Assembly (NCBI RefSeq): GCF_000156195.1
Contig: NZ_GG688318.1
Coordinates: forward strand, 168,882-232,881
From: Bacteroides finegoldii DSM 17565
GTDB taxonomy: Bacteria; Bacteroidota; Bacteroidia; Bacteroidales; Bacteroidaceae
DNA length: 64,000 nucleotides
Reading direction: 5' to 3'
The notes under the pieces were generated by a model, which did not search any database, was not told the origin of the DNA, and worked only from the letters and a program-made list of their open reading frames with translations. Made by a program: the position numbers and the translations under genes. This document shows, piece by piece, positions 4,411 through 32,111 of this stretch (the first letter of the stretch is position 1; each line of letters starts with the position of its first letter).

Positions 4411-4458
4411 GTTTGAGGATAGTGTCTTATTATCATAATCACATGACAAAAAACATAT

Positions 4459-7825: not shown

Positions 7826-8830
7826 ATGAAGGAAAAGAAAATGAGTAATCTAAGTGAAGATATAATCAACAGATATCTGACAGGACAATGTTCCGAAGAG
7901 GAACTTATCGAAGTGAACGCTTGGATGAAGGAATCGGAAGAAAATGCCCTCCGGTTATTTCGTATGGAAGAAATTTATCATTTAGGTAAATTCGGCCGAT
8001 ATACCGATGGACAACGGATACTTCGTGCAGAAAAACAGCTTTATAAGAAATTGGACGAAGAGCAAGGGAAACGGAATAAAATACTGCGCATACATCGTTG
8101 GATGAAATATGCAGCAGTCATTGCTATAATATTCGCCATCAGCGGTGGAATCGGATATTGGTCTCATAATGGATCCGACCAGCAAATGATGGTTGCAGTT
8201 GCCGGTGAAGGTATTGTGAAGGAAGTTGTCCTGCCGGATGGTACTAAAGTCTGGCTAAACAACTCGGCTACCTTAAAATACCCGCGTGAGTTTTCCGAAA
8301 ACGAGCGTAATGTGCATTTGGAAGGAGAAGCTTACTTCGAAGTAACCAAAAACCGCCACAAGCCATTCACAGTACAAAGTGACGCCATGTGCGTACGTGT
8401 ATTGGGGACAACATTCAATTTCAAATGCGACAAACGTTGCCGGATAGCCGAAGCCACCTTGATTGAAGGTGAAATCGAAGTGAAAGGCAACAAAGAAGAA
8501 GGACAAATCATCCTTACTCCCGGACAGCGTGCGGAACTGAACAAAAGTAACGGACGGCTGACCGTGAAACAAGTAGATGCCAAGTTAGATGCAGTATGGC
8601 ATAACAACCTGATTCCATTCCAAAAAGCGGATATATTTGCAATAACCAGAACATTGGAACGTTTCTATGATGTAAAGATTATACTGTCTCCCGATATACA
8701 ACCGGATAAAACTTACTCCGGTGTACTGAAAAGGAAATCCAACATCGAATCCGTATTGAAATCATTGCAGAACTCCATACCTATTAATTATAAAATTGTC
8801 GGAAACAATATCTTTATTTCTCCCAAATAA
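7826..8830 (+). CDS. FecR-family anti-sigma factor (BT3992-like)
   Basis: A 334-residue inner-membrane protein. The N-terminal cytoplasmic part (DIINRYLTGQCSEEELIEVN) would hold the sigma factor. One membrane helix spans about residues 93-112 (YAAVIAIIFAISGGIGYW). The periplasmic FecR domain contains LPDGTKVWLNNSATLKYP and GEAYFEVTKNRHKPF, followed by the DUF4974 C-terminal domain typical of Bacteroidetes. It passes the signal from the STN domain of SusC to the sigma factor. The gap to the sigma gene is 43 bp and to the next GH92 gene 43 bp, consistent with one transcript. An ATG five codons in (MSNLSEDI) is an alternative start. Confidence 0.93.
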   Translation: MKEKKMSNLSEDIINRYLTGQCSEEELIEVNAWMKESEENALRLFRMEEIYHLGKFGRYTDGQRILRAEKQLYKKLDEEQGKRNKILRIHRWMKYAAVIAIIFAISGGIGYWSHNGSDQQMMVAVAGEGIVKEVVLPDGTKVWLNNSATLKYPREFSENERNVHLEGEAYFEVTKNRHKPFTVQSDAMCVRVLGTTFNFKCDKRCRIAEATLIEGEIEVKGNKEEGQIILTPGQRAELNKSNGRLTVKQVDAKLDAVWHNNLIPFQKADIFAITRTLERFYDVKIILSPDIQPDKTYSGVLKRKSNIESVLKSLQNSIPINYKIVGNNIFISPK

Positions 8831-13508: not shown

Positions 13509-13558
13509 ATCTTCTCTTAATTACTTTTTCACTACCTTTGCTCACACAAACAAAATTC

Positions 13559-13999
13559 ATGAGCATGAAAGAAAAACTTGACTTTTCAGAAGTTCCTTAT
13601 CAATACTCGATGTGCCTTAACCGGCAATGTCCGAAAGCCGACATATGCCTTAGACAACTCGCCGAACAAAGTATACCGGAAAAGGTCGAACATTGGACAA
13701 TTATTAGTCCCAAGCGTTTAACTACTACAAAAGGAGATTGTCCTTATTATCGTTCCAATATCAAAGCGAGCTATGCAAAAGGATTCATCGGCATCTTGGA
13801 AAGTCTGCCTCATAAGCAAATGGAAAATGTAATCATACATTTAATGAGTTTTTTCAGTCGAAGAACCTATTATCGTGTCCGCAAAGGTGAACGTTTACTC
13901 TCTCCTGCCGAGCAGCAGCAAGTTTTGAATGTCCTTAAATATTGTGGTGTTTTACAACCACCTAAGTTCGATGAGTATATCGAAGCTTATGATTGGTGA
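13559..13999 (+). CDS. DUF6078-like small protein (BT3989-like)
   Basis: A 146-residue protein that I recognise only as the DUF6078 type. Cysteines are clustered near the N-terminus (MCLNRQCPKADICLRQ), which could bind a metal, with another in GDCPYY. There is no signal peptide. An upstream TTG at 13538 could lengthen it, but that TTG is part of a -7 element, TACCTTTG (13533-13540), so the ATG at 13559 is preferred. It stands alone between two terminators. No function can be assigned. Small DUF6078 genes are often found near Bacteroides polysaccharide utilisation loci. Confidence 0.75.
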   Translation: MSMKEKLDFSEVPYQYSMCLNRQCPKADICLRQLAEQSIPEKVEHWTIISPKRLTTTKGDCPYYRSNIKASYAKGFIGILESLPHKQMENVIIHLMSFFSRRTYYRVRKGERLLSPAEQQQVLNVLKYCGVLQPPKFDEYIEAYDW

Positions 14000-14441: not shown

Positions 14442-15707
14442 CTAAATGGAATCGCAGAAATACCCTCTATGTGAAACCTCATCTTTAATGAATGAAAAGA
14501 TTCCCCATATACGCCTGCCATCATTTTTTATAATCTCTAAAGTTACCGGCTCATTCTGGTAATATATATAATTAGGATAAAAATAACTATAATATGAGAA
14601 AGAAGCATCCATCTTTTTTCCTTCACTCTTATCACCGCTAAACGTTAATAAAGAATAATAAACATTGTAATATTCCCATCCATAAGTTACTTGCCCATTT
14701 TGTTGCTCATTTTTAAAGCTAACTGCCAATCCTCCTATAATTTGGTCATTGTCATCCAAATAATAGCGGCGCGAGTTATCGGCAACAATCGCTTGTATTT
14801 CTTCTTCTGTATAAGTCTTGTCTGTCGGAAGAACACGTATGATACAAGTCGCCTTCAAATTCAGAATATCAGTAACCGTAATTGTAGCAACAAGGTCTGT
14901 ATCCGAATTCTTAAGTATACCTGTGATTTTAACTGCTCCTAAAGCAGTTACGGAAACTTGTATATCCTGATTATCAGAGACAACTTTATAGCCGCCGTTA
15001 CCATCTACAACGTTTATCGTTACAGCGAACGACTTTCCAACAGCACCTTCTGCTTCCACATTCGTTTCGTCTAGTTTGAGAACATCAGTACGATGCGCTG
15101 ATATACAAACGTCAAATACAGATATCATGCCCAAAACATCAGTAACGGTAACAGCTGCAGTTGTAGGAGTTTCTATGTCTTCTGGCTTTCCCATTATGGT
15201 AATCGTTCCGCTTTCCGAAGCAGAAACAGTTACTTTCGGATTATCAGATACAACCTTATAACCGCCATTACCCTCTATTATATTAACTGTTGCATACGCT
15301 GATATATTAAGGAGAGATTCAATCTCCACTTCTGTTTTATCCAATTCTATTACATCTGTAAGGCCTACCAGTATCGGTTTCTTTTCATAATAACCATTTT
15401 TATCGGATACCACGATATAAGTTTTACCAATACTGATACCTTTTATCATGATCTTTCCGTCTACAACTTCCGCCTTTGCAATATTTTCATTAGTCGAAAA
15501 AGCATTGTATTCGCCACCACCTTGCAATATTTCAAGCTCGGCGTCGGTATCTTCTCCGATTTTCACAAATAATGCATCTTCAGCAACCATCAATTCAGGA
15601 TTCGAAGGCGGTGTATCTATTCCCGGTTCATCATCATTACCACAGCTGAAAAATGACAGTACCACAACAGTCATCAACATGGTTTTATATATAATCTTCA
15701 TACTCAT
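14442..15707 (-). CDS. Lipoprotein with tandem Ig-like repeats (BT3988-like)
   Basis: A surface or periplasmic lipoprotein of about 421 residues (signal peptide MLMTVVVLSFFSC). Two clear tandem domains share the pattern LDKTEVEIE / LDETNVEAE, then GNGGYKVVSDN and TVTDVLGM / TVTDILNL, as in bacterial Ig-like (Big) folds. A related N-terminal copy is weaker (GGGEYNAFSTN). The C-terminal ~100 residues are unassigned. No catalytic motif is visible, so a glycan-binding or spacer role is inferred. The chosen start (ATG at 15707) puts the signal peptide at the N-terminus; ATG 15701 is equally possible, and a longer reading frame would overlap the GH18 gene. It is the last gene of the left cassette and has no counterpart in the right cassette. 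Confidence 0.8.
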   Translation of the reverse strand: MSMKIIYKTMLMTVVVLSFFSCGNDDEPGIDTPPSNPELMVAEDALFVKIGEDTDAELEILQGGGEYNAFSTNENIAKAEVVDGKIMIKGISIGKTYIVVSDKNGYYEKKPILVGLTDVIELDKTEVEIESLLNISAYATVNIIEGNGGYKVVSDNPKVTVSASESGTITIMGKPEDIETPTTAAVTVTDVLGMISVFDVCISAHRTDVLKLDETNVEAEGAVGKSFAVTINVVDGNGGYKVVSDNQDIQVSVTALGAVKITGILKNSDTDLVATITVTDILNLKATCIIRVLPTDKTYTEEEIQAIVADNSRRYYLDDNDQIIGGLAVSFKNEQQNGQVTYGWEYYNVYYSLLTFSGDKSEGKKMDASFSYYSYFYPNYIYYQNEPVTLEIIKNDGRRIWGIFSFIKDEVSHRGYFCDSI

Positions 15708-15733
15708 ATCTATTTTTATTTTCATATATAATA

Positions 15734-17179
15734 TTATTCCCAATCCTTAGGATATTTCACTCCATCATATACAAGTTCATCATCAAAAAATACTTCTGCA
15801 ATATCTTGCATGGAAGGTAATTGTTGATATTCAAAATTCAATCTATACGGATCCATAGCAAAAATCATGTGCGTCTTATACCCTCCATCGACCATCCATT
15901 GCAATTGGCTCTTCTTTGCTATAAATCTACCGGTGTACTCTTGAGAATATAATCCCATATTACTTTTGGGTAGTCCCGGGAAAGAACTGCTCATATTACC
16001 GGCCACCCCATAATCACGCACTGCATAAGTTACATACTCACCGGATTGTATCGTGCGACCATCCACATATATTGACGGTAAACTAAAAATAGTACCATAA
16101 GCATATACTACAATGTCCTTTTCAGGCTGAAGTTTATGTACCTCATAGGCAAGACGCGAACAGGCCGATGCAGCCGGTCTGACAAATCCGGGAACCGTCA
16201 AATATAAATTATAATCATTATAATCAGCATATTCTTCATCCAGAAAAATACCATCCAAATTATAGGCATCGCACATCGCCTTAATTTCCAAAGCAAATTC
16301 CCGACAAGTTTCAGGGGCCAGATTGCATAAACCCGAACCATCATGATCGGGCATTATACCCATAAATACTTTCATCCCATGATCCTGTAAAGGTTTCAGA
16401 TAATGCTCATTTTTATCAAGCAATGCCTGTACATTAGCATTATACTTCATTGTAACCTGGCCGGTCTCCCGATTATACATCATGTTGCCTGAGAACATAA
16501 TCAAAGCGTCAATCAGCAACTTCTTACTATTCTTCAAGGTGAAACTTAAATTATTGAGCGGATTGGTGTCATTTACTTCCATACAACTGAAGATTTTAAC
16601 TCCGCTTGCTTTGTTGCAATCAGGCATGCCGGTTTTGTCTGTAACAAAAACCAACCAGGTATTTTCCTCCTGCACTAAATCCAAATTACCGGAAATCACG
16701 TTTATTTTCAAAGGAATAACATATTTTTTATCCATTGAAAGTTCACCATTTGAGACAAAAGAAATCTGAAGCGGAGAAGATTTCTTTTCACCGGCTTTCA
16801 CTTCCAATACCGCTTCCTCCGGTAACATTACTTGTGATTGGGGAAACAATTCATACGAAGCAGAGTTTCTGACATTATAGTCTTCAAGCACGTTTTCGTC
16901 ATAAACAACCGACACAGCACAATCCGATGTCGTTTTTTTTGTCAGATTAAGATACAATAACAAATCACCGGATGATCTGAATTCAACATTTGAGGCCAAT
17001 TGTTTCCCCTGGCTATCAGTTAAATATCCTAATAAATCATCATGAAATTCATATAATTTTTCATCAACAGTACCCACTGTCATGTCATCTTCTGTACAAG
17101 AAGAAATAAACAGGCCTCCCAACATCAGGAGAGCCATACATTGCAGTTTTAATAGATTCAGATATTTCATATTCTTCAT
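15734..17179 (-). CDS. GH18 endo-beta-N-acetylglucosaminidase (EndoBT-3987-like)
   Basis: A 481-residue lipoprotein (signal peptide ending LFISSC). A DUF1735/beta-sandwich domain occupies about residues 35-180, and the GH18 barrel begins near 190. The catalytic segment is DGIFLDEEYADY (309-320), whose D314 and E316 form the DxE pair of GH18 endoglycosidases that cut between the two core GlcNAc residues of N-glycans. By size, domain order and neighbours it matches EndoBT-3987, which releases high-mannose glycans at the cell surface. It is second to last in the left cassette. In the present orientation no promoter drives it, because the SusC/SusD genes and their upstream region point away. Confidence 0.92.
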   Translation of the reverse strand: MKNMKYLNLLKLQCMALLMLGGLFISSCTEDDMTVGTVDEKLYEFHDDLLGYLTDSQGKQLASNVEFRSSGDLLLYLNLTKKTTSDCAVSVVYDENVLEDYNVRNSASYELFPQSQVMLPEEAVLEVKAGEKKSSPLQISFVSNGELSMDKKYVIPLKINVISGNLDLVQEENTWLVFVTDKTGMPDCNKASGVKIFSCMEVNDTNPLNNLSFTLKNSKKLLIDALIMFSGNMMYNRETGQVTMKYNANVQALLDKNEHYLKPLQDHGMKVFMGIMPDHDGSGLCNLAPETCREFALEIKAMCDAYNLDGIFLDEEYADYNDYNLYLTVPGFVRPAASACSRLAYEVHKLQPEKDIVVYAYGTIFSLPSIYVDGRTIQSGEYVTYAVRDYGVAGNMSSSFPGLPKSNMGLYSQEYTGRFIAKKSQLQWMVDGGYKTHMIFAMDPYRLNFEYQQLPSMQDIAEVFFDDELVYDGVKYPKDWE

Positions 17180-17191: not shown

Positions 17192-18370
17192 TTATTGATT
17201 TTTCTCCGGTAATTCAAGAGGCTTCCATGTCAAATCCTTATTAGCAGTAAGATTATTTCCACTTGCATAATCAGTTATGCTCATCCCTTGCCCCTCATCA
17301 AATTTCCAATAAGCAACTAAACCCTCCGACTTTGGATCCACATAATAAAAATGATTCTTAGCTTGAATTTCCTCCACTGTCAAAACACGATTCCAAATAC
17401 GGCATTCACAAATATCACCATCCAAATAACGCGCAGCTTCATAAGAATAACCAATCCAGAAACCGCGTTTAAGTTCAGTTTCTTCTTCCACCGGATAAGA
17501 GTATCCCCAATTCACCGTGGTACGAATAGTTTTATTCCCATATCCCCTTGACACACCGTCCACAAACATTTCCGACTGCCCGGTATTTCCGTCATAAGTA
17601 AAAGCAATATGTACCCATTTCCCCGTTTCTATTGTCCAGTTGGGATTTGTAGCATTAGTGGAAGTCGTAGCAAGCTGAAGCTGATTTCCCGGAAGTCCCT
17701 GATCACTGAAACGGAGCAGAAACTTTCCTTCTATTCCCATCAAAGTACTGATTTTATTATTCAGTTCATCGGCACGAACAAGTGCTTCTACCGTTATTGT
17801 CTTCAAGCCTATCAATACACCGGCGTGAAGAAAATTCGGCTTCAACCTTCTTTCTTTTATATTGGCCACTGTATTGATTAATGCAGCACCTTTAAATACA
17901 TAATAAACTGTACGTGCGCTTTCCAAAAGTTCCCAATCAGACTCAGCTACAGTTACAGGCAATACATAGACCAAATTACTGTTCAACGCCGTCAAGTCCT
18001 TAAAATGCAATACAACATCAGTAGAAACAACACTTCCCTTATTAATTATGACATTCGACTCTTTTACTTCGTAGTAATCCTCCGGCAGCGCAACAGCTGC
18101 ATCATAATAAATCTCATTATATGTTGTAACCAATGACGGTTCTGCCTTATATACAATATGTATATCACTCTCCACCGGCTGGGGAATGGTAGCCTGAAAA
18201 GTCTGCAACATTTCGTCTACACCGGGTTTAAGCAAATGTGTTGCAACCTTTTTGGACACATCTCCGGTAATCACCTTGCTGTCAAAACTCTCGGCATCGT
18301 CCTGACAGGATACTACATTTACTGCCAACAGCAATACAAAAAGACTGAAAATTGAGTTATATTTCTTCAT
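17192..18370 (-). CDS. DUF1735 + LamG lipoprotein, surface glycan-binding (BT3986-like)
   Basis: A 392-residue lipoprotein (signal ending NVVSC). The N-terminal DUF1735-type domain covers about 30-165. It is followed by a LamG/concanavalin-like domain (about 175-385) with TVEALVRADELNNKISTLMG, WVHIAFTYDG and WNRVLTVEEIQ, and a closing GLVAYWKFDEG. Such proteins bind glycan at the outer surface next to the SusCD complex. It has a close paralogue at 25423-26592 in the right cassette (shared STLMGIEGKFL, YYVFKGA, LINxVANIKE). It is separated by 15 bp from the headless gene upstream and 12 bp from the GH18 gene downstream, consistent with one operon. Confidence 0.88.
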   Translation of the reverse strand: MKKYNSIFSLFVLLLAVNVVSCQDDAESFDSKVITGDVSKKVATHLLKPGVDEMLQTFQATIPQPVESDIHIVYKAEPSLVTTYNEIYYDAAVALPEDYYEVKESNVIINKGSVVSTDVVLHFKDLTALNSNLVYVLPVTVAESDWELLESARTVYYVFKGAALINTVANIKERRLKPNFLHAGVLIGLKTITVEALVRADELNNKISTLMGIEGKFLLRFSDQGLPGNQLQLATTSTNATNPNWTIETGKWVHIAFTYDGNTGQSEMFVDGVSRGYGNKTIRTTVNWGYSYPVEEETELKRGFWIGYSYEAARYLDGDICECRIWNRVLTVEEIQAKNHFYYVDPKSEGLVAYWKFDEGQGMSITDYASGNNLTANKDLTWKPLELPEKNQ

Positions 18371-18385: not shown

Positions 18386-19279
18386 TTATTTAACTGACGG
18401 ATTAAGCGATGAAATTATTTTCTTGGTATATTTATAGTTTTTATCCGCATAGAAGTAGTCATTTGAGATATTATAAATACCGACACCTCCCACCTGTCTT
18501 CCTCCTTGAAGCGATATCGCCCATTCAGCAACGATATCAGCAGCAAGTACACTTCCCAGATATCCGGTTATCTTATCGGAAGTATCCAACGATGGCATAG
18601 TAACTACCATTCCCACTGGACTATCATCTACACCTTCCGCCGTTGCAAGAGAATATTCATAAGTAAGCATGTCTTTATTAGTAACTTGTGTTCCCAATAC
18701 CCAAATCATACCACACTCTTTCAAAAAGGTTTTGAAGTACAGATTCTGAGGTCTTCCTTTGAACGAAACCAGTTTACCTGAATTCCGGATATGCCAATCC
18801 TTTATAATTCCAGTAAACATACTCTCATTCATTATATACTCATCTCTTTCTTCCTCAGTCATATGAGTACTTTTCCGTCCTGTATAACTCACACAAATAC
18901 CATCATAATTATATTTTGGTACAATTTTCAACGCATTCAACAAAGAATCCATCAGGAAATCTTCAAATCTTTCTGATACAGGTTCTACACTCAAAACATC
19001 CCCCTGCTTCCTATTATAAGCAACTTTTATAGAATCAAAACTTATGTCATAAATCACTTTCGTACCTTTTTCCATCTGGATTTCTGACATTTCTCTTATT
19101 TCCCAATCTGATAAGTTATCTGGACATAGCAAGGACACAACATCAAGACTATCGGGTAAATCAACAAGATGCTGTGCACGACTGACGGACTTCTTCTCGC
19201 TATTATCAAACCACGCGTACACTTTTTTATGTTCCGTATCGGCTTTGTATTGGCGTAAGTTCTCCAAGTACTTGGTATT
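18386..19279 (-). CDS. Headless GH18-like surface lipoprotein gene (silent paralogue)
   Basis: An open frame of about 297 codons homologous to the gene at 24393-25412 but without its first ~45 codons: no ATG, no signal peptide and no lipobox. An in-frame TAA (19282-19280) lies directly upstream of the shared repeat. The only possible start inside is the TTG at 19267, which would give a cytoplasmic fragment. Its first 82 bp of shared sequence (19278-19197) are identical to 24529-24610, after which the proteins diverge (NSEKKSVSRAQHL versus NSEKNPSSYAQHI). The GH18-like fold is inferred; the DxE acid is absent (YDGICVSYTGR), so a binding role is likely. Inversion of 19279-24528 would join it in frame to the signal peptide and give a predicted 342-residue lipoprotein. 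Confidence 0.85.
   Translation of the reverse strand, partial: NTKYLENLRQYKADTEHKKVYAWFDNSEKKSVSRAQHLVDLPDSLDVVSLLCPDNLSDWEIREMSEIQMEKGTKVIYDISFDSIKVAYNRKQGDVLSVEPVSERFEDFLMDSLLNALKIVPKYNYDGICVSYTGRKSTHMTEEERDEYIMNESMFTGIIKDWHIRNSGKLVSFKGRPQNLYFKTFLKECGMIWVLGTQVTNKDMLTYEYSLATAEGVDDSPVGMVVTMPSLDTSDKITGYLGSVLAADIVAEWAISLQGGRQVGGVGIYNISNDYFYADKNYKYTKKIISSLNPSVK
19197..19278 (-). repeat. Left 82-bp inverted repeat of the invertible segment
   Basis: Perfect inverted copy of 24529-24610. With one mismatch the match extends to 88 bp (19191-19278). It codes for the same peptide in the same frame as the right copy (YTKYLENLRQYK onward). A 12-bp palindrome, CCAAGTACTTGG, lies 3 bp from its inner edge (19264-19275). 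Confidence 0.95.
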
Positions 19280-19320
19280 TTAATCATTCTCTGTTTAACA
19301 ATACATTGCAATATTTTCAT

Positions 19321-19447
19321 TTTTAGAAAAAAAAGAGAAAACAGACTAAGTGTTTATTATATCATTATTGTTTTATTAACAGAAGGAGAGAAAGTCGACA
19401 CTCTCCTTTATAGAGTTTTAAAAAGTTATAACCATTAAATTAAATGT
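19321..19447 (+). promoter_or_regulatory. SusC promoter/leader region with hairpin
   Basis: AT-rich upstream region of the SusC gene, inside the invertible segment. It contains a hairpin AAGGAGAG / CTCTCCTT (19383-19390 with 19401-19408) in the presumed 5' leader. No convincing TTTG-N19-TAnnTTTG element is seen, as expected if the ECF sigma factor at 7234 is used. The promoter itself is inferred, not visible as a known motif. Confidence 0.45.
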
Positions 19448-22400
19448 ATGGAAAGCAAACATTCGCTTCGAAAGCCAAAGCTATTTCGAACTTTATTGAT
19501 TCTCCTGTTTATGGCAGTTCCTTTACAATGGGCTACTGCACAGTTGACCTTATCAACTCCCCGTACAACTTTAGGAGCTGTAATCAAGCAAATTCAGTCA
19601 CAATCCAAGTATCAGTTTTTCTACAATGACAAACTGTCAACTACTGCTGTGGATCCTCTCAAAGTAAAAGACGCTTCATTGGAGCAAGTCCTGAATAAAC
19701 TTTTAAACAACAAAAACATTGCCTACAAGATAGATGATAATATAATCTATTTGTCGGAAAAAGAAGATTTGAATTCCAATCAACAGCAAACAAACAAAGA
19801 ACGCACTATAACAGGGCAGGTATTAGATTCAAAAGGCGAACCATTGATTGGTGTCAGTATTTTGGTTAAAGGCACAACCGATGGTGCTATCACCGATTTG
19901 AACGGTAATTACAAAGTTACTACTAAAAGCAATAGCCCTATTATCGTGTATTCTTATATCGGATACAAAACCCAAGAAATTCCATTAAACGGTCAAACTT
20001 CTTTGAATATAACGTTAATGGATGACACACAAGTAATTGATGAAGTTGTAGTCACAGCCTTAGGTATCAAACGGGCGACAAAAGCTTTGAGTTATAATGT
20101 GCAAGAAGTTAAAAGCGACGAACTCCTCACCAATAAAGACGCCAACTTCATCAACGCTTTGTCCGGTAAAGTAGCAGGCGTCACAATCAACAGTTCATCT
20201 TCCGGTGTTGGTGGTGCAAGTAAAGTTGTGATGCGTGGAACAAAAGCCATAAACCAATCTAGCAATGCATTATATGTCATTGACGGGGTTCCCATGTTCA
20301 ATTTAGGAAGTGAAGGCGGACAAGAAAATGACTCTAAAGGAACAACAGAAGCTATTGCCGACATCAATCCGGAAGATATCGAATCCATGTCTGTACTGAC
20401 AGGTGCCGCCGCAGCAGCACTCTACGGAAGTCATGCAGCCAATGGAGCAATCGTCATCACGACTAAAAAAGGAAAAGAAGGACGACTGCAATTAACTGTA
20501 AGTCAAAATACAGAATTTCTGCGCCCTTTCAGAATGCCGGAATTCCAAAACCGTTACGGAACGGGGGATTTGTTGTCCAATACCTCTTCGGTAGAAAAAA
20601 GTTGGGGGCATAAACTCAATTCTTCGAATTATATGGGTTATTCTCCTGTAGATGATTTTTTACAAACGGGAGTTGTTACGACCGAAACTGTTGCTCTTTC
20701 TACAGGAACAGAACGTAATCAAACTTACTTTTCTGCAAGTGCAATAAACTCTGACGGCATGGTGCCGAATAATGATTATAATCGTTATAATTTTACATTC
20801 CGAAATACTACTTCTTTCTTGAAAGACAAGATGACTTTGGACGTAAGCGCCAATTACGTTAAACAAAACGACCGCAATATGGTCAATCAAGGGACTTACT
20901 CCAATCCTCTAGTCACCGCTTATTTATTTCCACGTGGTGATGACTGGAACGACATTAAGATGTATGAACGCTATGACACCACACGTAAAATCTACACTCA
21001 ATATTGGCCACAGGATTTTTCCGGTCTAACCGGGCAAAACCCTTACTGGATCGCCTATCGTAACTTACGTGAAACGGATAAAGATCGTTACATGTTGAGT
21101 GCAGCATTAAATTACAAGATATTGGATTGGTTAAGCGTTTCAGGTCGTGTACGTGTTGATAATTCGGATTCCAGATATACCCGCAAATTATATGCAACCA
21201 GTAATGAAATTCTGGTAGAAAATTCAAAGAACGGTCTTTATGGAATCAGCCAAACCAATGACAAACAGACTTATGCAGACTTCATGGTCAACATTAACAA
21301 AACATTTAAAGAAGTATTAAGCCTACAAGCTAATCTCGGTGCATCTTATTCAGATATGCAGCAAGATGTATTTAGCAATGAAGGTCCTATCAGTGATACA
21401 AAAGGTATTGCCAATGTATTCAATGTTTTCCATTTGGATAATGACAAGACCAAACGCTCGCAATCCGGTTATCGTGAACAGACACAATCTATTTTCGCCA
21501 GTGTAGAATTAGGATATAAAAGTACCTATTATCTGACATTGACAGGACGTACAGACTGGCCTTCACAATTAGCTGGTCCGAATTCTGTAAAGAGCGCTTT
21601 CTTCTATCCTTCTATTGGTGGTTCGGTGATTTTGTCAGAGCTGTTACCGATGCCTAAGCAGATTTCATTCTTGAAGTTAAGGGCTTCTTATGCTTCAGTA
21701 GGTCTTCCTTTCCCACGTTTTCTGGCAAATCCTACATACGAATGGGATCAGAAAGCACAAAAATGGGCAGTAAAGACTCATTATCCAATGTATGAATTAA
21801 AGCCGGAAAAGACAAATTCATGGGAAATAGGTATTACTGCACGTTTCCTTGACCATTTCAACTTCGACTTAGGATTGTACACAACTAAGACATATAACCA
21901 GACATTCGAACCAAATATCTCAGTGTCTTCTCAATATTCTACAATTTATGTACAAACAGGTAGTGTACGCAATAAGGGTATCGAGTTATCTTTAGGATAC
22001 GACAACGATTGGAATGGAAAATTCAGATGGGGTTCCACTGTTACTTTCAGTGCCAACAAAAATGAAATACTTGAATTGATGGAAAATTACAAACATCCGG
22101 AAACAGGTGCTATCATAACATTGGATCGTTTAGAAGTAGGTGGCTTGGGAGATGCTAAATTTGTTCTGAAAAAAGGTGGCAGCTTAGGAGACCTTTACTC
22201 CATTAAAGATCTGCAACGTGATAGTAACGGCAACATATATGTGAATGAAAAAGGAGAAGTTGCCAGTGTAGCATCAGAAGATATTAAGTTAGGCAGTGTA
22301 TTCCCTAAATGCAATCTTTCATGGCGTAACGATTTCAAATGGAAGAATCTGAACTTCGGTTTTATGCTTTCAGCACGTTTTGGCGGCATTGTTTATTCTG

Positions 22401-22798
22401 CAACTCAGTCTTATCTTGACTATTACGGAGTATCTGAAGCTTCGGCTGCCGCACGCGATTTCGGTGGAGTTACCGTAAATGGCAGTGATGTGATTAATGC
22501 ACAAAAATGGTATTCGGTTGTCGGAGCACAGAACGGTATTCCCCAATACTATACATATAGCGCAACTAATGTACGTTTGCAGGAAGCGTCTATTGGATAC
22601 ACTATTCCTAAAAATAAATTATGGGGAATTGCAGACATCACGGTATCATTGGTAGGACGTAACCTTTGGATGTTGTATTGTAAAGCACCATTTGACCCTG
22701 AAGCGGTCGCAACTACCGGCAACTATTACCAAGGGATTGATAACTTCATGACTCCCAGCGCACGCAGCTTAGGATTCAACGTTCGATTCAAGTTTTAA
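19448..22798 (+). CDS. SusC-like TonB-dependent transporter with STN domain (BT3983-like)
   Basis: A 1116-residue outer-membrane transporter. Order of parts: a signal peptide (LLILLFMAVPLQWATAQ); an STN signalling domain (about 33-105, SQSKYQFFYNDKLS to DNIIYLSEK); a carboxypeptidase-regulatory-like domain (about 118-195, ITGQVLDSKGEPLIGVS); a plug (ALSGKVAGVTI; VMRGTKA; ALYVIDGVPM); and a beta-barrel ending SLGFNVRFKF. It imports released oligomannose glycans with its SusD lid. The STN domain means it can signal through the FecR/ECF sigma pair at 7234-8830. It lies 19 bp from the SusD gene and wholly inside the invertible segment, so it is shared by both cassettes. Confidence 0.93.
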   Translation: MESKHSLRKPKLFRTLLILLFMAVPLQWATAQLTLSTPRTTLGAVIKQIQSQSKYQFFYNDKLSTTAVDPLKVKDASLEQVLNKLLNNKNIAYKIDDNIIYLSEKEDLNSNQQQTNKERTITGQVLDSKGEPLIGVSILVKGTTDGAITDLNGNYKVTTKSNSPIIVYSYIGYKTQEIPLNGQTSLNITLMDDTQVIDEVVVTALGIKRATKALSYNVQEVKSDELLTNKDANFINALSGKVAGVTINSSSSGVGGASKVVMRGTKAINQSSNALYVIDGVPMFNLGSEGGQENDSKGTTEAIADINPEDIESMSVLTGAAAAALYGSHAANGAIVITTKKGKEGRLQLTVSQNTEFLRPFRMPEFQNRYGTGDLLSNTSSVEKSWGHKLNSSNYMGYSPVDDFLQTGVVTTETVALSTGTERNQTYFSASAINSDGMVPNNDYNRYNFTFRNTTSFLKDKMTLDVSANYVKQNDRNMVNQGTYSNPLVTAYLFPRGDDWNDIKMYERYDTTRKIYTQYWPQDFSGLTGQNPYWIAYRNLRETDKDRYMLSAALNYKILDWLSVSGRVRVDNSDSRYTRKLYATSNEILVENSKNGLYGISQTNDKQTYADFMVNINKTFKEVLSLQANLGASYSDMQQDVFSNEGPISDTKGIANVFNVFHLDNDKTKRSQSGYREQTQSIFASVELGYKSTYYLTLTGRTDWPSQLAGPNSVKSAFFYPSIGGSVILSELLPMPKQISFLKLRASYASVGLPFPRFLANPTYEWDQKAQKWAVKTHYPMYELKPEKTNSWEIGITARFLDHFNFDLGLYTTKTYNQTFEPNISVSSQYSTIYVQTGSVRNKGIELSLGYDNDWNGKFRWGSTVTFSANKNEILELMENYKHPETGAIITLDRLEVGGLGDAKFVLKKGGSLGDLYSIKDLQRDSNGNIYVNEKGEVASVASEDIKLGSVFPKCNLSWRNDFKWKNLNFGFMLSARFGGIVYSATQSYLDYYGVSEASAAARDFGGVTVNGSDVINAQKWYSVVGAQNGIPQYYTYSATNVRLQEASIGYTIPKNKLWGIADITVSLVGRNLWMLYCKAPFDPEAVATTGNYYQGIDNFMTPSARSLGFNVRFKF

Positions 22799-22817
22799 CC
22801 TCTTTTATTAAAGTACA

Positions 22818-24380
22818 ATGAATAAATCAATTATAAAATTATTTCTGTTAGGAGGATTGACTATAACCTCAATAACTTCCTGTACAGACAATTATATGGA
22901 TTATAATAAAAACCCATACGAAGTGACCGATGACGAAATGGAACGGGATGCCCACAAATTGGGGGCAGCACTCGTGGGTATGCAAAGTGTAATCGTGCCT
23001 GTAGGAGAACATCTGGCACAGTTCTCCGAATGTTTGTTGGGAGGTGTTTTCAGCGGCTATATGGCAGACTCTAAAACATGGGGAAATTCGTTCTCATATT
23101 TTAATCAGTCAGAAGATTGGAACGGAAAGGTCTATCTGGATATCATGCCTGAAATTTACTCCAATCTTGCTGAAGTAAAAAAATCCACTACCGATCCTAT
23201 CCCATTGGCAGTAGCGGAAGTGCTAAAAGTAACAGCCATCGTTCGTGTTACAGATGTGTATGGTCCTATTCCTTATTCACAGGTAGGACAGGATGGTAAA
23301 CTGACAGCTCCTTTTGACACACAAAAGGATGTTTACACCAAAATGTTTCAGGAATTATCTGATGCCATCACTACTTTGACCGCCAACCGTACAAATGACT
23401 TTTCTCCGAATGCTGATCAAGTCTTTGGTGGTAAAGTTGAAAAGTGGATAAAGTTTGCCAATTCACTAAAACTGCGTATGGCTATACGTATTCGCTATGC
23501 GGATGCTACATTGGCAGAACAAATGGTAAAAGAAGCTATCAGTACGGAAAATGGCCAGGTTGGTGTAATGGAGAATAATGACGATAATGCATTTATGAAA
23601 GTTTCCCTCAATCCGTTTTATACTATTTTCGGTTGGGGAGACTCCAGAATCGGTGCCGACTTACTTACATACATGAATGCTTATGAAGATCCCCGTCGCT
23701 CTGTTTATGCATTGAAGAGCACATTTGCCGGTTCATCGATAACAAACGGTTATCATGGTTTACGTATTGGAAACGAGCATACTGCTGTTGATGCCAAAAT
23801 GTATTCAAATATGAATGTTGCGGCTACAGCACCATTAATGTGGATGAATGCTGCCGAAGTTATGTTCCTGAGAGCAGAAGCTGCCCTGTTGGGATGGGAT
23901 ACCAAAGACACACCGGAAAATTATTATAAAGCAGGTATCCGTTTGTCATTTGGTCAACATGGGGTTAGTAACGTAGAAAGCTATTTGGAAGGAACCACAG
24001 CACCTAGCAGTTATAAAGATCCTAAAGACACATATACTGTAACATTACCGGGAAGCGCAGTTTCTGTAAAATGGTCAGGAGCTGACAATGAAGTTAATCT
24101 GGAACGTATCATTACGCAAAAATGGATTGCAAATTTCCCGTTAAGTTTGGAAGGATGGGCAGATTTCCGCAGAACCGGTTATCCCAGATTGCTATCCACT
24201 CCTAATAACAAAAGCAACGAGATTGCTGAAGGTAAATTTGCCCGTCGGTTGAAATATCCGCAACAAGAATATAATACGAATAAAGTTAATGTAGAGCAAA
24301 TTGTCAGTACGTTACCAGGAGGAGATAAAATGTCGACTCACATATGGTGGGACTGCAATCCTAGATTGTCAAATGAATAA
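22818..24380 (+). CDS. SusD-like glycan-binding lipoprotein (BT3984-like)
   Basis: A 520-residue SusD/RagB-type lipoprotein (signal ending SITSC), the surface lid of the SusC transporter. Typical features are the helical TPR-like region and IVRVTDVYGPIPYSQ, then WIKFANSLKLRMAIRI. The C-terminal part has MWMNAAEVMFLRAEAALLG and a closing LEGWADFRRTGYPR. It binds the incoming oligosaccharide and closes the barrel. It lies 19 bp after SusC and 12 bp before the GH18-like lipoprotein gene, within the invertible segment. Confidence 0.92.
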   Translation: MNKSIIKLFLLGGLTITSITSCTDNYMDYNKNPYEVTDDEMERDAHKLGAALVGMQSVIVPVGEHLAQFSECLLGGVFSGYMADSKTWGNSFSYFNQSEDWNGKVYLDIMPEIYSNLAEVKKSTTDPIPLAVAEVLKVTAIVRVTDVYGPIPYSQVGQDGKLTAPFDTQKDVYTKMFQELSDAITTLTANRTNDFSPNADQVFGGKVEKWIKFANSLKLRMAIRIRYADATLAEQMVKEAISTENGQVGVMENNDDNAFMKVSLNPFYTIFGWGDSRIGADLLTYMNAYEDPRRSVYALKSTFAGSSITNGYHGLRIGNEHTAVDAKMYSNMNVAATAPLMWMNAAEVMFLRAEAALLGWDTKDTPENYYKAGIRLSFGQHGVSNVESYLEGTTAPSSYKDPKDTYTVTLPGSAVSVKWSGADNEVNLERIITQKWIANFPLSLEGWADFRRTGYPRLLSTPNNKSNEIAEGKFARRLKYPQQEYNTNKVNVEQIVSTLPGGDKMSTHIWWDCNPRLSNE

Positions 24381-24392
24381 AATCTAAATATT

Positions 24393-25412
24393 ATGAAGAA
24401 TAAATTTAAAATAGCAACCTTATTGTTCTTTACTACAAGCTTCACATTAGGAGCATGTAGTGATTGGACAGATATTGAAGGTATAGATATCAAACAACCT
24501 AACATTCAGGAGCAGAATCCTGAGTTATATACCAAGTACTTGGAGAACTTACGCCAATACAAAGCCGATACGGAACATAAAAAAGTGTACGCGTGGTTTG
24601 ATAATAGCGAAAAGAATCCTTCCAGTTATGCACAACATATAACAAGCCTACCTGACAGCATTGATATTGTCGGTTTGATGTATCCTTCAGAGTTGGCAGC
24701 TTTTGAAAAAGAAGAAATAATGACTTTACAACAAAAGGGTACAAAAGTAGTTTACGCCATCAGTTATGATGAGATACATAAGCAATATGAGGACATTATT
24801 TCTACCCAATCAGAAGCTGAAAATGAAAATACATTTGACTATTTTCTTTCAAAAGAAATAGAAAAGCAATTGGCATATGCTGCCCCCTTTGATGGAATTA
24901 TACTAAAGTTTATCGGACAAAATCCGAAATATATGACAGCCGAAGATAAAGCTGCTTACACTGCCAGTCAAAATATCTTTTTCAATGCTGCATTAAACTG
25001 GATTAATAAAAATGAGGGAAAATTCCTCTCTTTACAAGGAAAACCTCAAAATGTAGTAGATAAGAATATTCTATCCAAATTCCTTCATCTCATCATAGAG
25101 ATGTACCAAGTAACAGATAAAAATAAATTTACTCTTGCCATTCAAGACTGTTTGGAAACAGGAGTACCAACAGACCGTTTCATCATGGCTGTTTCAACTC
25201 CTTCTTTGGACACGTCTGACACAAGTACAGGCTTCATAGGCACAGAAAGGGCTATTATTGAAACTGCTTATTGGATAACAGCAGACACTCAAGAATATGA
25301 TAAATGTGGCATAGCTATTAATAATGTCCAAAATGATTATTATCAAACAAGCGGGAATTACCACAATGTGAAAAAGACCATTAATATAATGAATCCAGCC
25401 CCCACCAAATAA
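24393..25412 (+). CDS. GH18-like, apparently non-catalytic surface lipoprotein (head inside the invertible segment)
   Basis: A 339-residue lipoprotein (signal ending TLGAC, Cys22). The fold looks GH18-like but the active-site segment reads FDGIILKFIGQN, without the DxE pair, so glycan binding rather than hydrolysis is inferred. Codons 1-45 lie inside the invertible segment and codons 46-73 are the right 82-bp repeat, so everything after residue ~73 is exchangeable. In the other orientation the same head would be fused to the paralogous body at 18386-19196. The sequence from here to 28577 appears more AT-rich than the left cassette, by eye. Confidence 0.85.
   Translation: MKNKFKIATLLFFTTSFTLGACSDWTDIEGIDIKQPNIQEQNPELYTKYLENLRQYKADTEHKKVYAWFDNSEKNPSSYAQHITSLPDSIDIVGLMYPSELAAFEKEEIMTLQQKGTKVVYAISYDEIHKQYEDIISTQSEAENENTFDYFLSKEIEKQLAYAAPFDGIILKFIGQNPKYMTAEDKAAYTASQNIFFNAALNWINKNEGKFLSLQGKPQNVVDKNILSKFLHLIIEMYQVTDKNKFTLAIQDCLETGVPTDRFIMAVSTPSLDTSDTSTGFIGTERAIIETAYWITADTQEYDKCGIAINNVQNDYYQTSGNYHNVKKTINIMNPAPTK
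24529..24610 (+). repeat. Right 82-bp inverted repeat of the invertible segment
   Basis: Identical to the reverse complement of 19197-19278 over 82 bp, and 87 of 88 if extended to 24616. It lies inside a coding sequence and preserves the codon phase in both contexts. The palindrome CCAAGTACTTGG is at 24532-24543, 3 bp from the inner edge. To the left of 24529 the similarity stops at once. To the right only protein-level paralogy remains. Confidence 0.95.
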
Positions 25413-26621: not shown

Positions 26622-28577
26622 ATGAAATATACAAGATTTATCAAATCATCTTTTTGGATTGCGCTACTTGCCTGTACAAGTAACGTATTTACCGCCTGCG
26701 AAGATGACATTACTATATCATCTGAAAATAACTCATTTGGTAATATAGAAGGTAATTTTGGCTACGTAAAATCAGCCGCCGGAGCAAAAGCTCTCACTGC
26801 CATAGCCATTAATGGTGACAAGCATGGTACAGGACATTTATACTTTGAACTGAACAAAGCCACCAATAAAGACATCACAGTAACATTTAAAGTTGATGAG
26901 TCAGCGCTAAATACCTACAATCAAGTAAATGGCACCAACTATCCAATGTATCCGACAGATAAACTTTCATTGGAAAATGAAGGAATAACAACCATTCCCG
27001 CCGGAAAGCGCAAATCCTCTTCTGTAGAGTTGGATATTCAACCTGGAGGTACAATCGGTACAAGGTATGCGGTAGCAGTATCAGCTACTGCTTCTGACGG
27101 AATTGAAACTTCGAGCAATAACGAATCTTATATTTATCTTGTAACTCCACAAGCTACTCTACCTAATACGGAAAAAGGAAGAGTCAAAACAATCTGTTAC
27201 ATAGAGGTAAATAATGAAAATATATTGAATGCAGGTGAATATACCATGGAAAACAGTAAGAAACCATTCTTCGATATAGTCAATGTTTTTGCCGCCAATA
27301 TTCGTTTAAATGAAGAGGGAAAGCCATACGTACATTGCAATCCGCAAGTAACTTTCGTTTTAGAGAATGCTGATAAGCTAATTCGTCCGTTACAGCAAAA
27401 AGGAATAAAAGTCCATTTAACCATTTTAGGCGACCATACACCAGCGGGCATGAGAAGTTTAGGGGATGAAGCCGCTAAAGATTTTGCCAAAGAACTAAAA
27501 TCATATGTGGACATTTATGGATTTGACGGTATAAGTTTTGATGATGAATGGTCAAACTATGAACAAGTGGGAGGGCATCCCGGATTGGTAGTTCCATCAC
27601 AAGAGCAATACAGCCGCCTGATTTACGAGTGCCGACAAATAATGCCTGATAAACAAATTGGGGTATATTGGTGTAAACAGGAAAATGGTGAACCTTCTAT
27701 CAATTATCCATTAGGAGAAATTGAAGGTAAGGATGTAAATGATTTGTTAGATTATACTGTTTTTGGAAACTATAATTTATGGAATGAATTATCACATATT
27801 GATAAAACCAAGCAATGCCCATACGCAATAAATGTGACAGAAGATAATTTTTATCCTAATTCAGTCTATCTGTCTAAAATCAAAAACGAATGGGGATACT
27901 TTGCTATTTATAATTTAAAAGCATCAAAAGTTTATAGTTCAAAGTTTAATGAAATAGGTCAAACACTATATAATGACAACATTATATGGACTGAACAAGT
28001 ATATGGAAGAACTGATTTTACTCCTTCACGTTCATCAGCTATTAAAGATTACAACTATTATTTAGGAAATTGGAAAATCTCAACAGCTCAACAATATAAT
28101 TGGACAGGAAGTAAGTGGGAAAATAAATTTAGCAAAATGGAGTTCAACATCAGAATAGAAGAAAACATTAAAAATGAATCCTATTATGTATATGGATGGG
28201 CACCATATGGCAAATTGCTAGAACAGTATCCGTTAACCATGCTATATACTAATTCTGATACTAATCCACTCAGTATCCCAATGCCACAAGTTCTCCATTA
28301 TTCAGATGCCACAGATCCACTAATGTGGAAAATGTGTTGGGCCACTCCTGGACGCACAGCCAATTCATGGACAGTAGGAGGAAAAGAAGGAGAATTCAGA
28401 GCAATACTAAACAGCGACGGTTCAATTACCTTAAAACCATTTCCATTCAACGATAATAGAAACTGTACAGCTGTCCCATATTGTTCTAATGATGGCGGAA
28501 ATACATGGTTATACACTCATACTATTTTCCAAGAAGCACATCCGACAGGACTTAATTACGAATTGACAAAACAATAA
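26622..28577 (+). CDS. GH18 endo-beta-N-acetylglucosaminidase, large form (right cassette)
   Basis: A 651-residue lipoprotein (signal ending FTAC). A DUF1735-like N-terminal domain (about 50-185) is followed by a GH18 barrel with the active-site segment FDGISFDDEW, in which D306 and E308 form the DxE pair. About 180 extra C-terminal residues (from about 470), absent from the left-cassette enzyme, begin near YYLGNWKISTAQQYNW and may bind carbohydrate. It probably releases N-glycans, but the extra domain and divergent barrel suggest a different glycan preference from the EndoBT-3987-like enzyme. It is the last gene of the currently connected operon. Confidence 0.87.
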   Translation: MKYTRFIKSSFWIALLACTSNVFTACEDDITISSENNSFGNIEGNFGYVKSAAGAKALTAIAINGDKHGTGHLYFELNKATNKDITVTFKVDESALNTYNQVNGTNYPMYPTDKLSLENEGITTIPAGKRKSSSVELDIQPGGTIGTRYAVAVSATASDGIETSSNNESYIYLVTPQATLPNTEKGRVKTICYIEVNNENILNAGEYTMENSKKPFFDIVNVFAANIRLNEEGKPYVHCNPQVTFVLENADKLIRPLQQKGIKVHLTILGDHTPAGMRSLGDEAAKDFAKELKSYVDIYGFDGISFDDEWSNYEQVGGHPGLVVPSQEQYSRLIYECRQIMPDKQIGVYWCKQENGEPSINYPLGEIEGKDVNDLLDYTVFGNYNLWNELSHIDKTKQCPYAINVTEDNFYPNSVYLSKIKNEWGYFAIYNLKASKVYSSKFNEIGQTLYNDNIIWTEQVYGRTDFTPSRSSAIKDYNYYLGNWKISTAQQYNWTGSKWENKFSKMEFNIRIEENIKNESYYVYGWAPYGKLLEQYPLTMLYTNSDTNPLSIPMPQVLHYSDATDPLMWKMCWATPGRTANSWTVGGKEGEFRAILNSDGSITLKPFPFNDNRNCTAVPYCSNDGGNTWLYTHTIFQEAHPTGLNYELTKQ

Positions 28578-28637: not shown

Positions 28638-30056
28638 CTATTCCACCTGCCCCTCCGGATAATTCACCAAATACAACGTTTTCGTTGCCCGAGTAAAAGC
28701 CGTGTACAACCAACGGAAATAATCAGGAGTCAAATACTCGTCCGTCATATATCCCTGATCCAAAAACACATTCTGCCACTGTCCGCCCTGTGCTTTATGA
28801 CAAGTCACCGCATATGCATACTTCACTTGCAAGGCATTATAGTGCGGATCGACTTTCATTTTTTTCATCCGGTCACGTTTATTGGCAATATCGGCATAAT
28901 CCTCAAGCACAGTATAAAACAAACGGTCATTATCCGCTTTCGACAATGCTGGTGAATCTGAATGCAAAGTATCTAATAATAGATTAGCATCCAGTTCAAA
29001 ATCATTCTGGTCAGGAAATCTCAAGGTGACCTCCGCAAAATGGAATCCATACATCTCACGAGTGCGACGGACACGACGGACAACAGCAATCTCACCATTG
29101 GCTATGAAATCCATTTCCTTATACTTCTCTGTCCAATAATAGTTATTCTTGGTCACCATCAGCATATCGCCCGTATTCAATTCATCTTCACGCCATAGGA
29201 TTTGCGCACGTATCCCATTATTATATAGGTTCGCACGTTTATTGGAACGGCAAATAACGATTGTCTCATCCATCCCGTCGTGATCATAGCAGTTTGTCAA
29301 TTCTTCTATCAGTTCTGTGCCAGGCGCTTGCTTGATATCAGGAAAGCCCGTTATCTTTATCTTAGGTAGAGAGTAACATTCGTCTTCCGCTATCAACTGC
29401 CTCAACTGCGTAGCATTCCACAAAATACCGGACTCTTGCACTTGGCGGACTACCTGAATCAGGCTAATCTCACGGACTTCAAGCCCATATCCTTTCAACG
29501 CGTCGGCAAAAAGTGCCGGACTCAATTCCTCTCCCACCGGAGGAAGCTGTGCTGTATCTCCCATCAACAAAAGACGACACCCTTGTCCCGAATAGACAAA
29601 TTGTATCAAGTCATCCAGCAAACGTCCCGTACCGAACACGCTGCCGGACAGACCCTCGTTGGAAATCATGGAGGCTTCATCCACAATAAACAAGGTGTTT
29701 GTAGCAAGATTGTCATTTATGGAGAAATTAGTAAACTCGTTGGAATAGGACTGTTGCCGGTATATCTTCTTATGAATGGTGAAAGCAGGATGGCCTGCAT
29801 ACGCCGAAAAAACTTTTGCGGCACGTCCCGTAGGAGCCAACAAGACAGACTTCTGCTGCAACTGTTCCATCGTTTTCACCAATGCTCCGACCAGAGATGT
29901 CTTACCGGTACCGGCATAACCTCTCAAGATAAAAACTTCATCCGCCAGAGTAGATAACAGGAACTCTGAAAGAGATTTTACAGCAATTTCTTGCTCTAAA
30001 GTTGGTTGGTAAGGAAAATTTTCCTTAATTTGCCTTTCTAAATAGTTATTTATCAT
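28638..30056 (-). CDS. RecD-like ATP-dependent DNA helicase (AAA_30/UvrD_C_2)
   Basis: A 472-residue superfamily 1 helicase. The Walker A motif is GYAGTGKTSL (near residue 44), Walker B is TLFIVDEASM, and LLLMGDTAQLPPVGEE is motif III. The C-terminal motifs VTCHKAQGGQW and RWLYTAFTRATKTLYL match the UvrD_C_2 domain. Related proteins work in DNA repair or replication-fork processing. It stands alone, convergent with the glycan locus and divergent from the next gene. Confidence 0.9.
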   Translation of the reverse strand: MINNYLERQIKENFPYQPTLEQEIAVKSLSEFLLSTLADEVFILRGYAGTGKTSLVGALVKTMEQLQQKSVLLAPTGRAAKVFSAYAGHPAFTIHKKIYRQQSYSNEFTNFSINDNLATNTLFIVDEASMISNEGLSGSVFGTGRLLDDLIQFVYSGQGCRLLLMGDTAQLPPVGEELSPALFADALKGYGLEVREISLIQVVRQVQESGILWNATQLRQLIAEDECYSLPKIKITGFPDIKQAPGTELIEELTNCYDHDGMDETIVICRSNKRANLYNNGIRAQILWREDELNTGDMLMVTKNNYYWTEKYKEMDFIANGEIAVVRRVRRTREMYGFHFAEVTLRFPDQNDFELDANLLLDTLHSDSPALSKADNDRLFYTVLEDYADIANKRDRMKKMKVDPHYNALQVKYAYAVTCHKAQGGQWQNVFLDQGYMTDEYLTPDYFRWLYTAFTRATKTLYLVNYPEGQVE

Positions 30057-31646: not shown

Positions 31647-32111
31647 TTATTTCTTCTTAGGGGTAATGAAGCCAATAGGATTACGCGGCTTGTCTGCCAA
31701 TGCTTTTTGCACCTGCAATTCGGCTAATGTCTGATTTATCAATTCCAATTGCATACGAGTGTCGTCATTGATGTCGTTGTAGTCTGCGAACACTTCTTCG
31801 ATATACTCTTTCAGTTCCTTGACTTCACGCTGTAGTTCATGTACCGGACTGATAGGAGGACTTAACAGTAACGAACAGCAACAAAAGCACGCATAATGCC
31901 CATGTTTATTTGTATGACCGTCTTTGATTTCCGTTTTTTCATCTGTCAACTGAAACATAAAATCAATAGGAAAACGATCTGTATTACGTTTCACCGCTTG
32001 ATTTAAAGCGCGGGGTTCAACTCCATACATTTCTGCCAAATCTCTATCCAGCATAACCTTTTGTCCACGTATATCATAAATCTTACTCTGTATTACTTCG
32101 AGTTGTTCCAT
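31647..32111 (-). pseudogene. ORF6N-domain protein with internal deletion
   Basis: A 154-residue open frame. The N-terminal ORF6N domain (IYDIRGQKVMLDRDLAEMYG; RFPIDFMFQLTDE) and the C-terminal tail (SPPISPVHELQREVKELKEY) are normal. The middle has been replaced by a nonsense stretch, HYACFCCCSLLL. In the neighbouring frame the same DNA (31897-31871) encodes IMRAFVAVR, the conserved segment expected there. A deletion of perhaps 50-60 codons therefore put the frame out, and it returns to the proper frame before SPPISPV. ORF6N proteins are phage- or mobile-element-associated DNA-binding proteins. This copy is probably non-functional. It sits between DUF3822 and rsmD, which are usually adjacent. 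Confidence 0.7.

What the first reader, a model, noticed from the sequence alone, without database searches (positions are those of the whole stretch)
19197..24610. A 5.25-kb SusC/SusD segment framed by perfect 82-bp inverted repeats: a predicted DNA switch choosing between two glycosidase cassettes
Seen: 19197-19278 is the exact reverse complement of 24529-24610. Between them lie the upstream region, SusC, SusD and the head of a lipoprotein. Outside, two paralogous cassettes point away in opposite directions, each in the order GH18-like lipoprotein, DUF1735+LamG, GH18 endoglycosidase. Inference: inversion connects the importer to one cassette or the other, and always beheads the disconnected one. 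Site-specific shuffling of susC/susD genes is known in Bacteroides. A switch that keeps one SusC/SusD pair and changes the downstream surface enzymes is something I do not know to be described.
Basis: partly seen in the sequence, partly recalled or inferred. Interest (0 to 1): 0.95.

Follow-up and report, generated by a model that had tools for sequence, protein, structure and literature searches.

The report
Flipping importer picks glycan-cutting enzyme set
A gut Bacteroides keeps one sugar importer on a 5.3-kb DNA segment between two inverted 22-base sites; related genomes show the segment in both orientations, and flipping it, likely by a site-specific recombinase, would join the importer to one or the other of two neighbouring sets of surface proteins predicted to strip N-glycans from host proteins.

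Summary
The 82-bp inverted repeat is perfect, and a simulated flip grafts the 46-residue head of the connected lipoprotein in frame onto the headless left one. The conserved unit is smaller: a 22-bp site, found as one inverted pair about 5.3 kb apart around SusC/SusD in 6 of 158 genus genomes. Two sister pairs (SusC 97.8% and 98.7% identical) carry the segment in opposite orientations. The computed inversion product of one relative matches a database protein at 99.7% over 343/343 residues. Near-identical heads occur on tails as little as 28-33% alike. Pairwise dN/dS of a cassette disconnected in one genome is 0.05-0.14. In two relatives the sites lie between genes, a version without beheading. 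The locus resembles high-mannose N-glycan loci. The recombinase is not identified, no reads could be examined, and the exact fusion predicted for this window was not found. SusC/SusD inversions are known in Bacteroides; one importer moving between two enzyme cassettes was not seen in the searches made.

The parts
19256..24551 (.). invertible segment, outer ends of the two 22-bp sites (5296 bp)
19197..19278 (-). left arm of the 82-bp inverted repeat; 22-bp site at 19256-19277
24529..24610 (+). right arm of the 82-bp inverted repeat; 22-bp site at 24530-24551
19279..19447 (+). upstream region of susC inside the segment, with a block conserved (judged by eye) in 7 of 7 loci compared; inferred promoter region
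19448..22798 (+). SusC (STN, CarbopepD_reg_2, Plug, barrel)
22818..24380 (+). SusD
24393..25412 (+). connected GH18-like lipoprotein; its first 46 codons (head with lipobox-like LGAC) lie inside the segment
25423..26592 (+). right cassette: BT_3987-like_N + Laminin_G_3 lipoprotein
26622..28577 (+). right cassette: EndoF1/EndoH-type GH18 (motif DGISFDDE)
18386..19267 (-). left, headless GH18-like lipoprotein, open frame continuing to the site
17192..18370 (-). left cassette: BT_3987-like_N + Laminin_G_3 lipoprotein
15734..17179 (-). left cassette: EndoF1-type GH18 (motif DGIFLDEE)
14442..15743 (-). left cassette: fourth gene, lipoprotein-like, no Pfam or NCBIfam match
7234..7782 (+). ECF-type sigma factor outside the segment, likely regulator
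7826..8830 (+). FecR-type anti-sigma factor outside the segment, likely regulator
4967..7204 (+). GH92
8874..11153 (+). GH92
11150..13417 (+). GH92
13538..13999 (+). DUF6078 gene, left flank marker
28638..30056 (-). helicase-like gene, right flank marker used to score orientation

Best explanation
This is a likely reversible DNA switch in which a 5.3-kb segment carrying one SusC/SusD importer, its likely promoter and the 46-residue head of a lipoprotein gene is predicted to flip between two inverted 22-bp sites, likely through a site-specific recombinase acting in trans, so that the importer would be joined to one or the other of two flanking cassettes of predicted N-glycan-harvesting proteins. 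Shown: the sites, the in-frame product, both orientations in relatives, and natural proteins that carry one head on different tails. Inferred: that transcription from upstream of susC runs through whichever cassette is connected; that the disconnected cassette is silent, its first protein having no head; that the ECF sigma/FecR pair outside the segment controls the importer in either orientation; and that the choice changes how glycoproteins are bound and cut while import and the GH92 enzymes stay the same.
For: Perfect 82-bp inverted repeat, two copies in the genome; in-frame 342-aa graft. The 22-bp site: 7 of 158 genus genomes match with up to 2 mismatches, 6 of them with exactly one forward and one reverse match around SusC/SusD, reversed control 0. 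Importer faces the helicase flank in 4 of 6 two-cassette loci and away in 2 of 6; sister pairs G000/G106 and G086/G091 are opposite. Computed product of G091 = P0014, 99.7% over 343/343. 4 of 4 head groups with more than one member join near-identical heads to dissimilar tails. Headless tails are catalogued, P0002 and P0121. Site conserved in intergenic DNA in G021 and G012, and 4-9 of 22 bases different in 12 of 12 distinct 22-mers coding the corresponding peptide in loci without the switch. Low dN/dS of a disconnected cassette.
Against: No read data, so switching within a clone is not shown. The exact window-head plus left-tail fusion was not among the proteins returned; the nearest, P0001, has one member sequence and a different head allele. 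The recombinase is unidentified: none of 41 tyrosine and 5 serine recombinase matches lies in the window, and the best-correlated candidate sits beside another repeat type. The site copies within G012 and within G021 are not identical (19/22 and 20/22), so those two may be inactive. Two-cassette loci do not form one group on the SusC tree (at least 4 changes). One reversed-control match turned up in 399 family genomes.
Confidence: 0.85

Rival explanations
1. The segment inverts by RecA-dependent homologous recombination between the 82-bp repeats rather than by a site-specific recombinase.
For: 82 bp of perfect identity in the window; 36 and 39 bp uninterrupted, with longer similarity around it, in G086 and G091; no recombinase gene recognised in the window.
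Against: The longest identical tract is 22 bp in G106, 16 in G021 and 11 in G012, although G106 has the opposite orientation to its near relative G000; the same 22-mer is kept in intergenic DNA; identity stops exactly at the inner edge of the 22-mer in the window.
Confidence: 0.1
2. Orientation differs between lineages because of rare, old inversions; there is no ongoing phase variation and the disconnected cassette is a relic.
For: No reads were examined; each genome shows one orientation; the exact fusion for the window was not found.
Against: Two sister pairs differ in orientation; the product computed from G091 occurs at 99.7%; the headless frames are open; dN/dS between a disconnected and a connected copy is 0.05-0.14, where a dead copy would be expected to push it to about 0.5 (pairwise, branches not separated).
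Confidence: 0.08
3. The repeat is an assembly duplication or misjoin.
For: None found; short repeats do break short-read assemblies (general knowledge).
Against: It lies inside a 401-kb contig with two different cassettes outside, and the same layout is found in other assemblies, among them contigs of 5.24 Mb (G106), 6.78 Mb (G086) and 6.47 Mb (G021).
Confidence: 0.01

Closest known systems
Tsr0667-driven SusC/SusD shufflons of Bacteroides fragilis (Nakayama-Imaohji 2009 not held; described in passages of PMC4747536 and PMC11852207)
   Same: Bacteroides, SusC/SusD locus, DNA inversion, recombinase acting on distant places. Read on its other strand the window's site core AGTTCTCCAAGTACT fits the consensus AGTYYYN4GDACT that I recall for that enzyme (recalled; one search found the string in no held paper).
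   Different: There several SusC/SusD genes are shuffled to alternative promoters; here one SusC/SusD pair is kept and carries the inferred promoter, and the downstream surface cassette changes.
Campylobacter fetus sap inversion (recalled; only named in a passage of PMC11852207)
   Same: Recalled: an invertible segment with promoter and transport genes lies between homologous surface-protein genes that share their 5' ends.
   Different: Recalled: long repeats, RecA dependence, S-layer proteins. Here a 22-bp site, a nutrient importer and multi-gene enzyme cassettes.
Invertible capsule promoters of Bacteroides (passages of PMC12632263)
   Same: Inverted repeats, phase-variable surface, same genus.
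   Different: There a promoter flips ON or OFF; here 5.3 kb with two genes flips between two cassettes.
PUL72 (BT3983-BT3988 and regulators) of B. thetaiotaomicron (passages of PMC11180146)
   Same: SusC, SusD, surface glycan-binding proteins, GH18 endoglycosidase, GH92 mannosidases, ECF sigma/anti-sigma control.
   Different: PUL72 as described has one cassette; here there are two around an invertible importer.

Membership tests
SusC/SusD shufflon (Tsr0667 type) | Several alternative SusC/SusD genes shuffled at several sites | tested here: not met
   One SusC/SusD pair and two sites in the window
SusC/SusD shufflon (Tsr0667 type) | Recombination site consensus (recalled AGTYYYN4GDACT) | tested here: inconclusive
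   Checked by eye: 10 of 12 site copies in the six two-cassette loci fit on one strand; but the looser form of the motif has 84 matches in the genome against 172 for its reversed control, and the consensus itself is recalled
SusC/SusD shufflon (Tsr0667 type) | Tsr0667 recombinase | not tested
Campylobacter fetus sap-type inversion | Segment with promoter and transport genes between two genes sharing their 5' part (recalled) | tested here: met
   Segment carries SusC/SusD, upstream region and lipoprotein head; the promoter itself is inferred
Campylobacter fetus sap-type inversion | Long homologous repeats, RecA-dependent (recalled) | tested here: not met
   Identical tract of 22 bp or less in three of six loci; RecA dependence itself is not testable with these tools
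Simple invertible promoter | Short segment without genes | tested here: not met
   5296 bp with two genes
High-mannose N-glycan utilization locus | SusC/SusD, EndoF1/BT3987-like GH18, GH92, ECF sigma/anti-sigma | tested here: met
   the substrate is not tested

The most novel reading that the evidence does not exclude
An importer-centred cartridge system: the flipping importer serves a stable cassette on one side and an exchangeable slot on the other, where foreign cassettes are swapped in between species and plugged into the resident importer by grafting a constant secretion head at a 22-bp coding site. Sister genomes with 97.8% and 98.7% identical SusC hold quite different slot cassettes (LamG protein 46-48%, endoglycosidase 34% identical) while their opposite-side cassettes stay 64-96% alike, and the window's left tail occurs at 99% under a different head allele (P0001).
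Probability: 0.6. Interest if true: 0.87.

Novelty: new variant of a known kind. Interest (0 to 1): 0.78.

Why it matters
Phase variation in gut Bacteroides is usually described as switching importers, capsules or coats on and off. Here the importer would stay on and only the tools that bind and cut host N-glycoproteins would change, so a clonal population would keep two foraging types for one class of nutrient. It makes testable whether two endoglycosidase cassettes that look redundant are a bet-hedging pair, and the 22-bp coding site would be a natural way to graft export heads onto surface proteins.

Tried and rejected
Recombinase hunt. None of the 41 PF00589 or 5 PF00239 matches of the genome falls in the window. 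A 318-aa tyrosine recombinase (G000:C24:185641-186594) has relatives of 62% or more in 7 of 7 genomes with sites and in 1 of 9 comparison genomes (G110); the other 8 have at most 42% or none at 1e-20. But in 12 of 12 stretches read around it and some of its relatives a different repeat (GTTACTTCTTAGGTAAC-like) lies close by, in the own genome before a 190-aa gene. I rejected it as the likely invertase; shared ancestry can explain the correlation. Of the 41 matches I fetched 20 regions and compared them with 30 loci of the other six genomes; no candidate came out of that.

Further sites: a looser core has 48 matches in the own genome against 123 for its reversed control; one lies 320 bp from a recombinase match, which I treat as chance. 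A junction pattern for the window's predicted fusion had no match in viral contigs. In the wider family 8 of 399 genomes match the 22-mer: 3 with the pair (G000, G086, G106, same genus) and 5 in other genera with a single site and 2 mismatches, not followed up; the reversed control matched once.

Dropped rows: P0123, P0124, P0125 and P0192 join the right tail to unrelated proteins and look like assembly chimeras. In one search the first-gene value for G000/G106 comes from 5 residues because I cut G106 out of frame; it is not used.

Considered and dropped: tandem paralogs without switching (headless ORF, in-frame graft and opposite orientations argue against it); a pseudogene (open frame, low dN/dS). 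Structure prediction was not run; sequence matches to solved structures sufficed.
Full report
Observation. The two 82-bp arms are exact reverse complements and are the only two matches in the 4.89-Mb assembly. Between them lie 169 bp of upstream DNA, susC, susD and the first 46 codons of a lipoprotein gene. The left lipoprotein ORF is open as far as the site but lacks the head; in-frame stops stand just outside the repeat. The head carries the lipobox-like motif LGAC at residues 19-22. Simulated inversion gives an uninterrupted 342-aa lipoprotein on the left and beheads the right one.

What the genes are. Each cassette has a BT1044-like GH18 lipoprotein (Pfam PF16141; its DG motif lacks the later acidic residues, so I take it for a binding protein; the best solved relative of the right one is BT1282), a BT_3987-like-N + Laminin_G_3 lipoprotein and an EndoF1/EndoH-type GH18 (solved relatives; Pfam and NCBIfam GH18/EndoH models are below cut-off or not hit). 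Both of the latter keep a D..E motif that I recall as catalytic. The left cassette has a fourth lipoprotein-like gene. Left and right proteins are 29-43% identical. To the left lie three GH92 genes, an ECF-type sigma factor and a FecR anti-sigma factor. SusC has an STN domain, which by established knowledge couples such importers to FecR/ECF regulation. This is the composition of a high-mannose N-glycan locus such as PUL72 (passages of PMC11180146).

Relatives. SusD was searched in 149 genus genomes, 44 of them with a match at 1e-100 or better. I mapped the genes by tblastn in 27 stretches (L033-L059; L041 continues L040, and two contigs appear twice) and in L073-L075 (L075 overlaps L053). Within the up to 20.9 kb read, six loci hold two cassettes with SusC/SusD between them: G000, G106, G086, G091, G021 and G012; in the others I saw one cassette (L039 has a second SusC/SusD pair downstream). 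Scored against the helicase-like flank gene, G000, G091, G021 and G012 point the importer towards it, G106 and G086 away. The sister pairs G000/G106 (SusC 97.8%) and G086/G091 (98.7%) are each opposite, so at least two inversions are needed. On the SusC tree of 21 rows the seven loci with sites need at least 4 changes (33 of 500 shuffles as low), so one origin is not shown.

The site. In G106 the local alignment finds an identical stretch of only 22 bp, TACCAAGTACTTGGAGAACTTA. The pattern with A or G at position 13 and up to 2 mismatches matches 7 of 158 genus genomes; 6 have exactly one forward and one reverse match, with outer ends 5211-5356 bp apart; the reversed control has none. In G021 and G012 the sites lie outside the genes, after susD and before susC, and each lipoprotein keeps its own start: an operon-switch version without beheading. 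The site is thus conserved as DNA and not only as peptide. In line with this, 12 distinct 22-mers from loci without the switch that code the corresponding peptide ([A/G]KYL[E/Q/N/K]NL) differ from the pattern at 4-9 of 22 positions (some of these differences change the residue). G127 is nearly identical to G021 in SusC (99.7%), but I found no second cassette there, and its second site has 4 mismatches to the pattern, counted by eye.

Nature's own products. After searches had returned their proteins, I computed from the locus DNA alone the fusion for each of the four head-grafting loci and compared it with those proteins. The G091 product matches P0014 (61 member sequences) at 99.7% over 343/343. 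The G086 product matches P0101 at 94.9% over 336/336. The window's product is 93.6% to P0001 (one member sequence), with the tail at 99.3% but a different head allele. The G106 product has only a 261-residue partial match without head at 98.9% (P0126). Headless tails are also catalogued: P0002 (left tail, 174 member sequences) and P0121 (right tail, 98.6%, 66 member sequences). Of 275 proteins returned in all, 20 have a 46-residue head before TKYLENL; they fall into 9 head groups, 4 with more than one member, and in all 4 near-identical heads (0-1 differences) sit on tails whose lowest pairwise identity is 28-33%. The window's head type occurs on the right tail (P0050) and on G106's tail (P0212, 96% to G106's protein). 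Against this, no returned protein has the window's head on its left tail.

Selection. Between G086 (right cassette disconnected) and G091 (connected), pairwise dN/dS is 0.14 for the lipoprotein tail, 0.05 for the LamG gene and 0.10 for the endoglycosidase; SusC has 0.017. Between G000 and G106 it is 0.09, 0.05 and 0.16, and 0.20 between the two headless left-type tails of G000 and G091, but there synonymous sites are near or at saturation. A cassette dead since the split would be expected to show about 0.5. The estimates do not separate branches.

Mechanism. In the window identity ends at the inner edge of the 22-mer; tracts of 22, 16 and 11 bp are too short for efficient RecA recombination (established knowledge). 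A site-specific recombinase acting in trans is therefore preferred; it is not identified (see Tried and rejected). The region just upstream of susC lies inside the segment and holds a block that looks conserved in all 7 loci compared (by eye); I infer the promoter there.

Novelty. SusC/SusD inversions are known in Bacteroides: Tsr0667 shufflons (passages of PMC4747536 and PMC11852207), nutrient-receptor shufflons of B. thetaiotaomicron (passage of PMC12548429), and invertible regions near susC/susD that differ in IBD (passage of PMC10939037; its table was not readable and may list this locus). Passages of PMC12632263, PMC5903667, PMC12025955 and PMC10994844 were also seen. In the listings of searches and the passages seen I found no switch that keeps one importer and changes the downstream enzyme cassette. 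Porter 2020, Nakayama-Imaohji 2009, Kuwahara 2004 and Chanin 2024 are not held, so absence from print is not established.

Species. The assembly is unnamed.

Noticed in passing
L126:6040-6327 (G000:C24), with similar repeats in L127-L137: A 318-aa tyrosine recombinase gene is followed by a repeat of the type TTACTTTTTAGGTAACGGAT, two inverted copies about 270 bp apart, before a 190-aa gene: looks like a local invertible promoter, of a site type different from the switch.
   Followed up: partly
L074 (G127), second site near 13818: Where no second cassette was found, the second site has 4 mismatches to the pattern although SusC is 99.7% identical to the two-cassette relative G021.
   Followed up: partly
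L075 (G012), around 17085: Just upstream of the intergenic site the DNA resembles the lipoprotein head (codes ...MQNPELPTKYFENL, read by eye), perhaps a relic of the head-grafting form.
   Followed up: no
window 14442-15743: Fourth gene of the left cassette: lipoprotein-like, no Pfam or NCBIfam match, with relatives at the same place in several other loci.
   Followed up: no
P0123, P0124, P0125, P0192: Database proteins that join the right tail to unrelated proteins, probably metagenome assembly chimeras.
   Followed up: no
L041 about 4153-4578 (G106:C1:2948053-2948478): A tyrosine recombinase match (413 aa open frame) about 10 kb from the switch of G106, with no counterpart in the window.
   Followed up: no
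window 31647-32111: ORF6N-domain gene near the right flank, a family often found on phages (the latter recalled).
   Followed up: no
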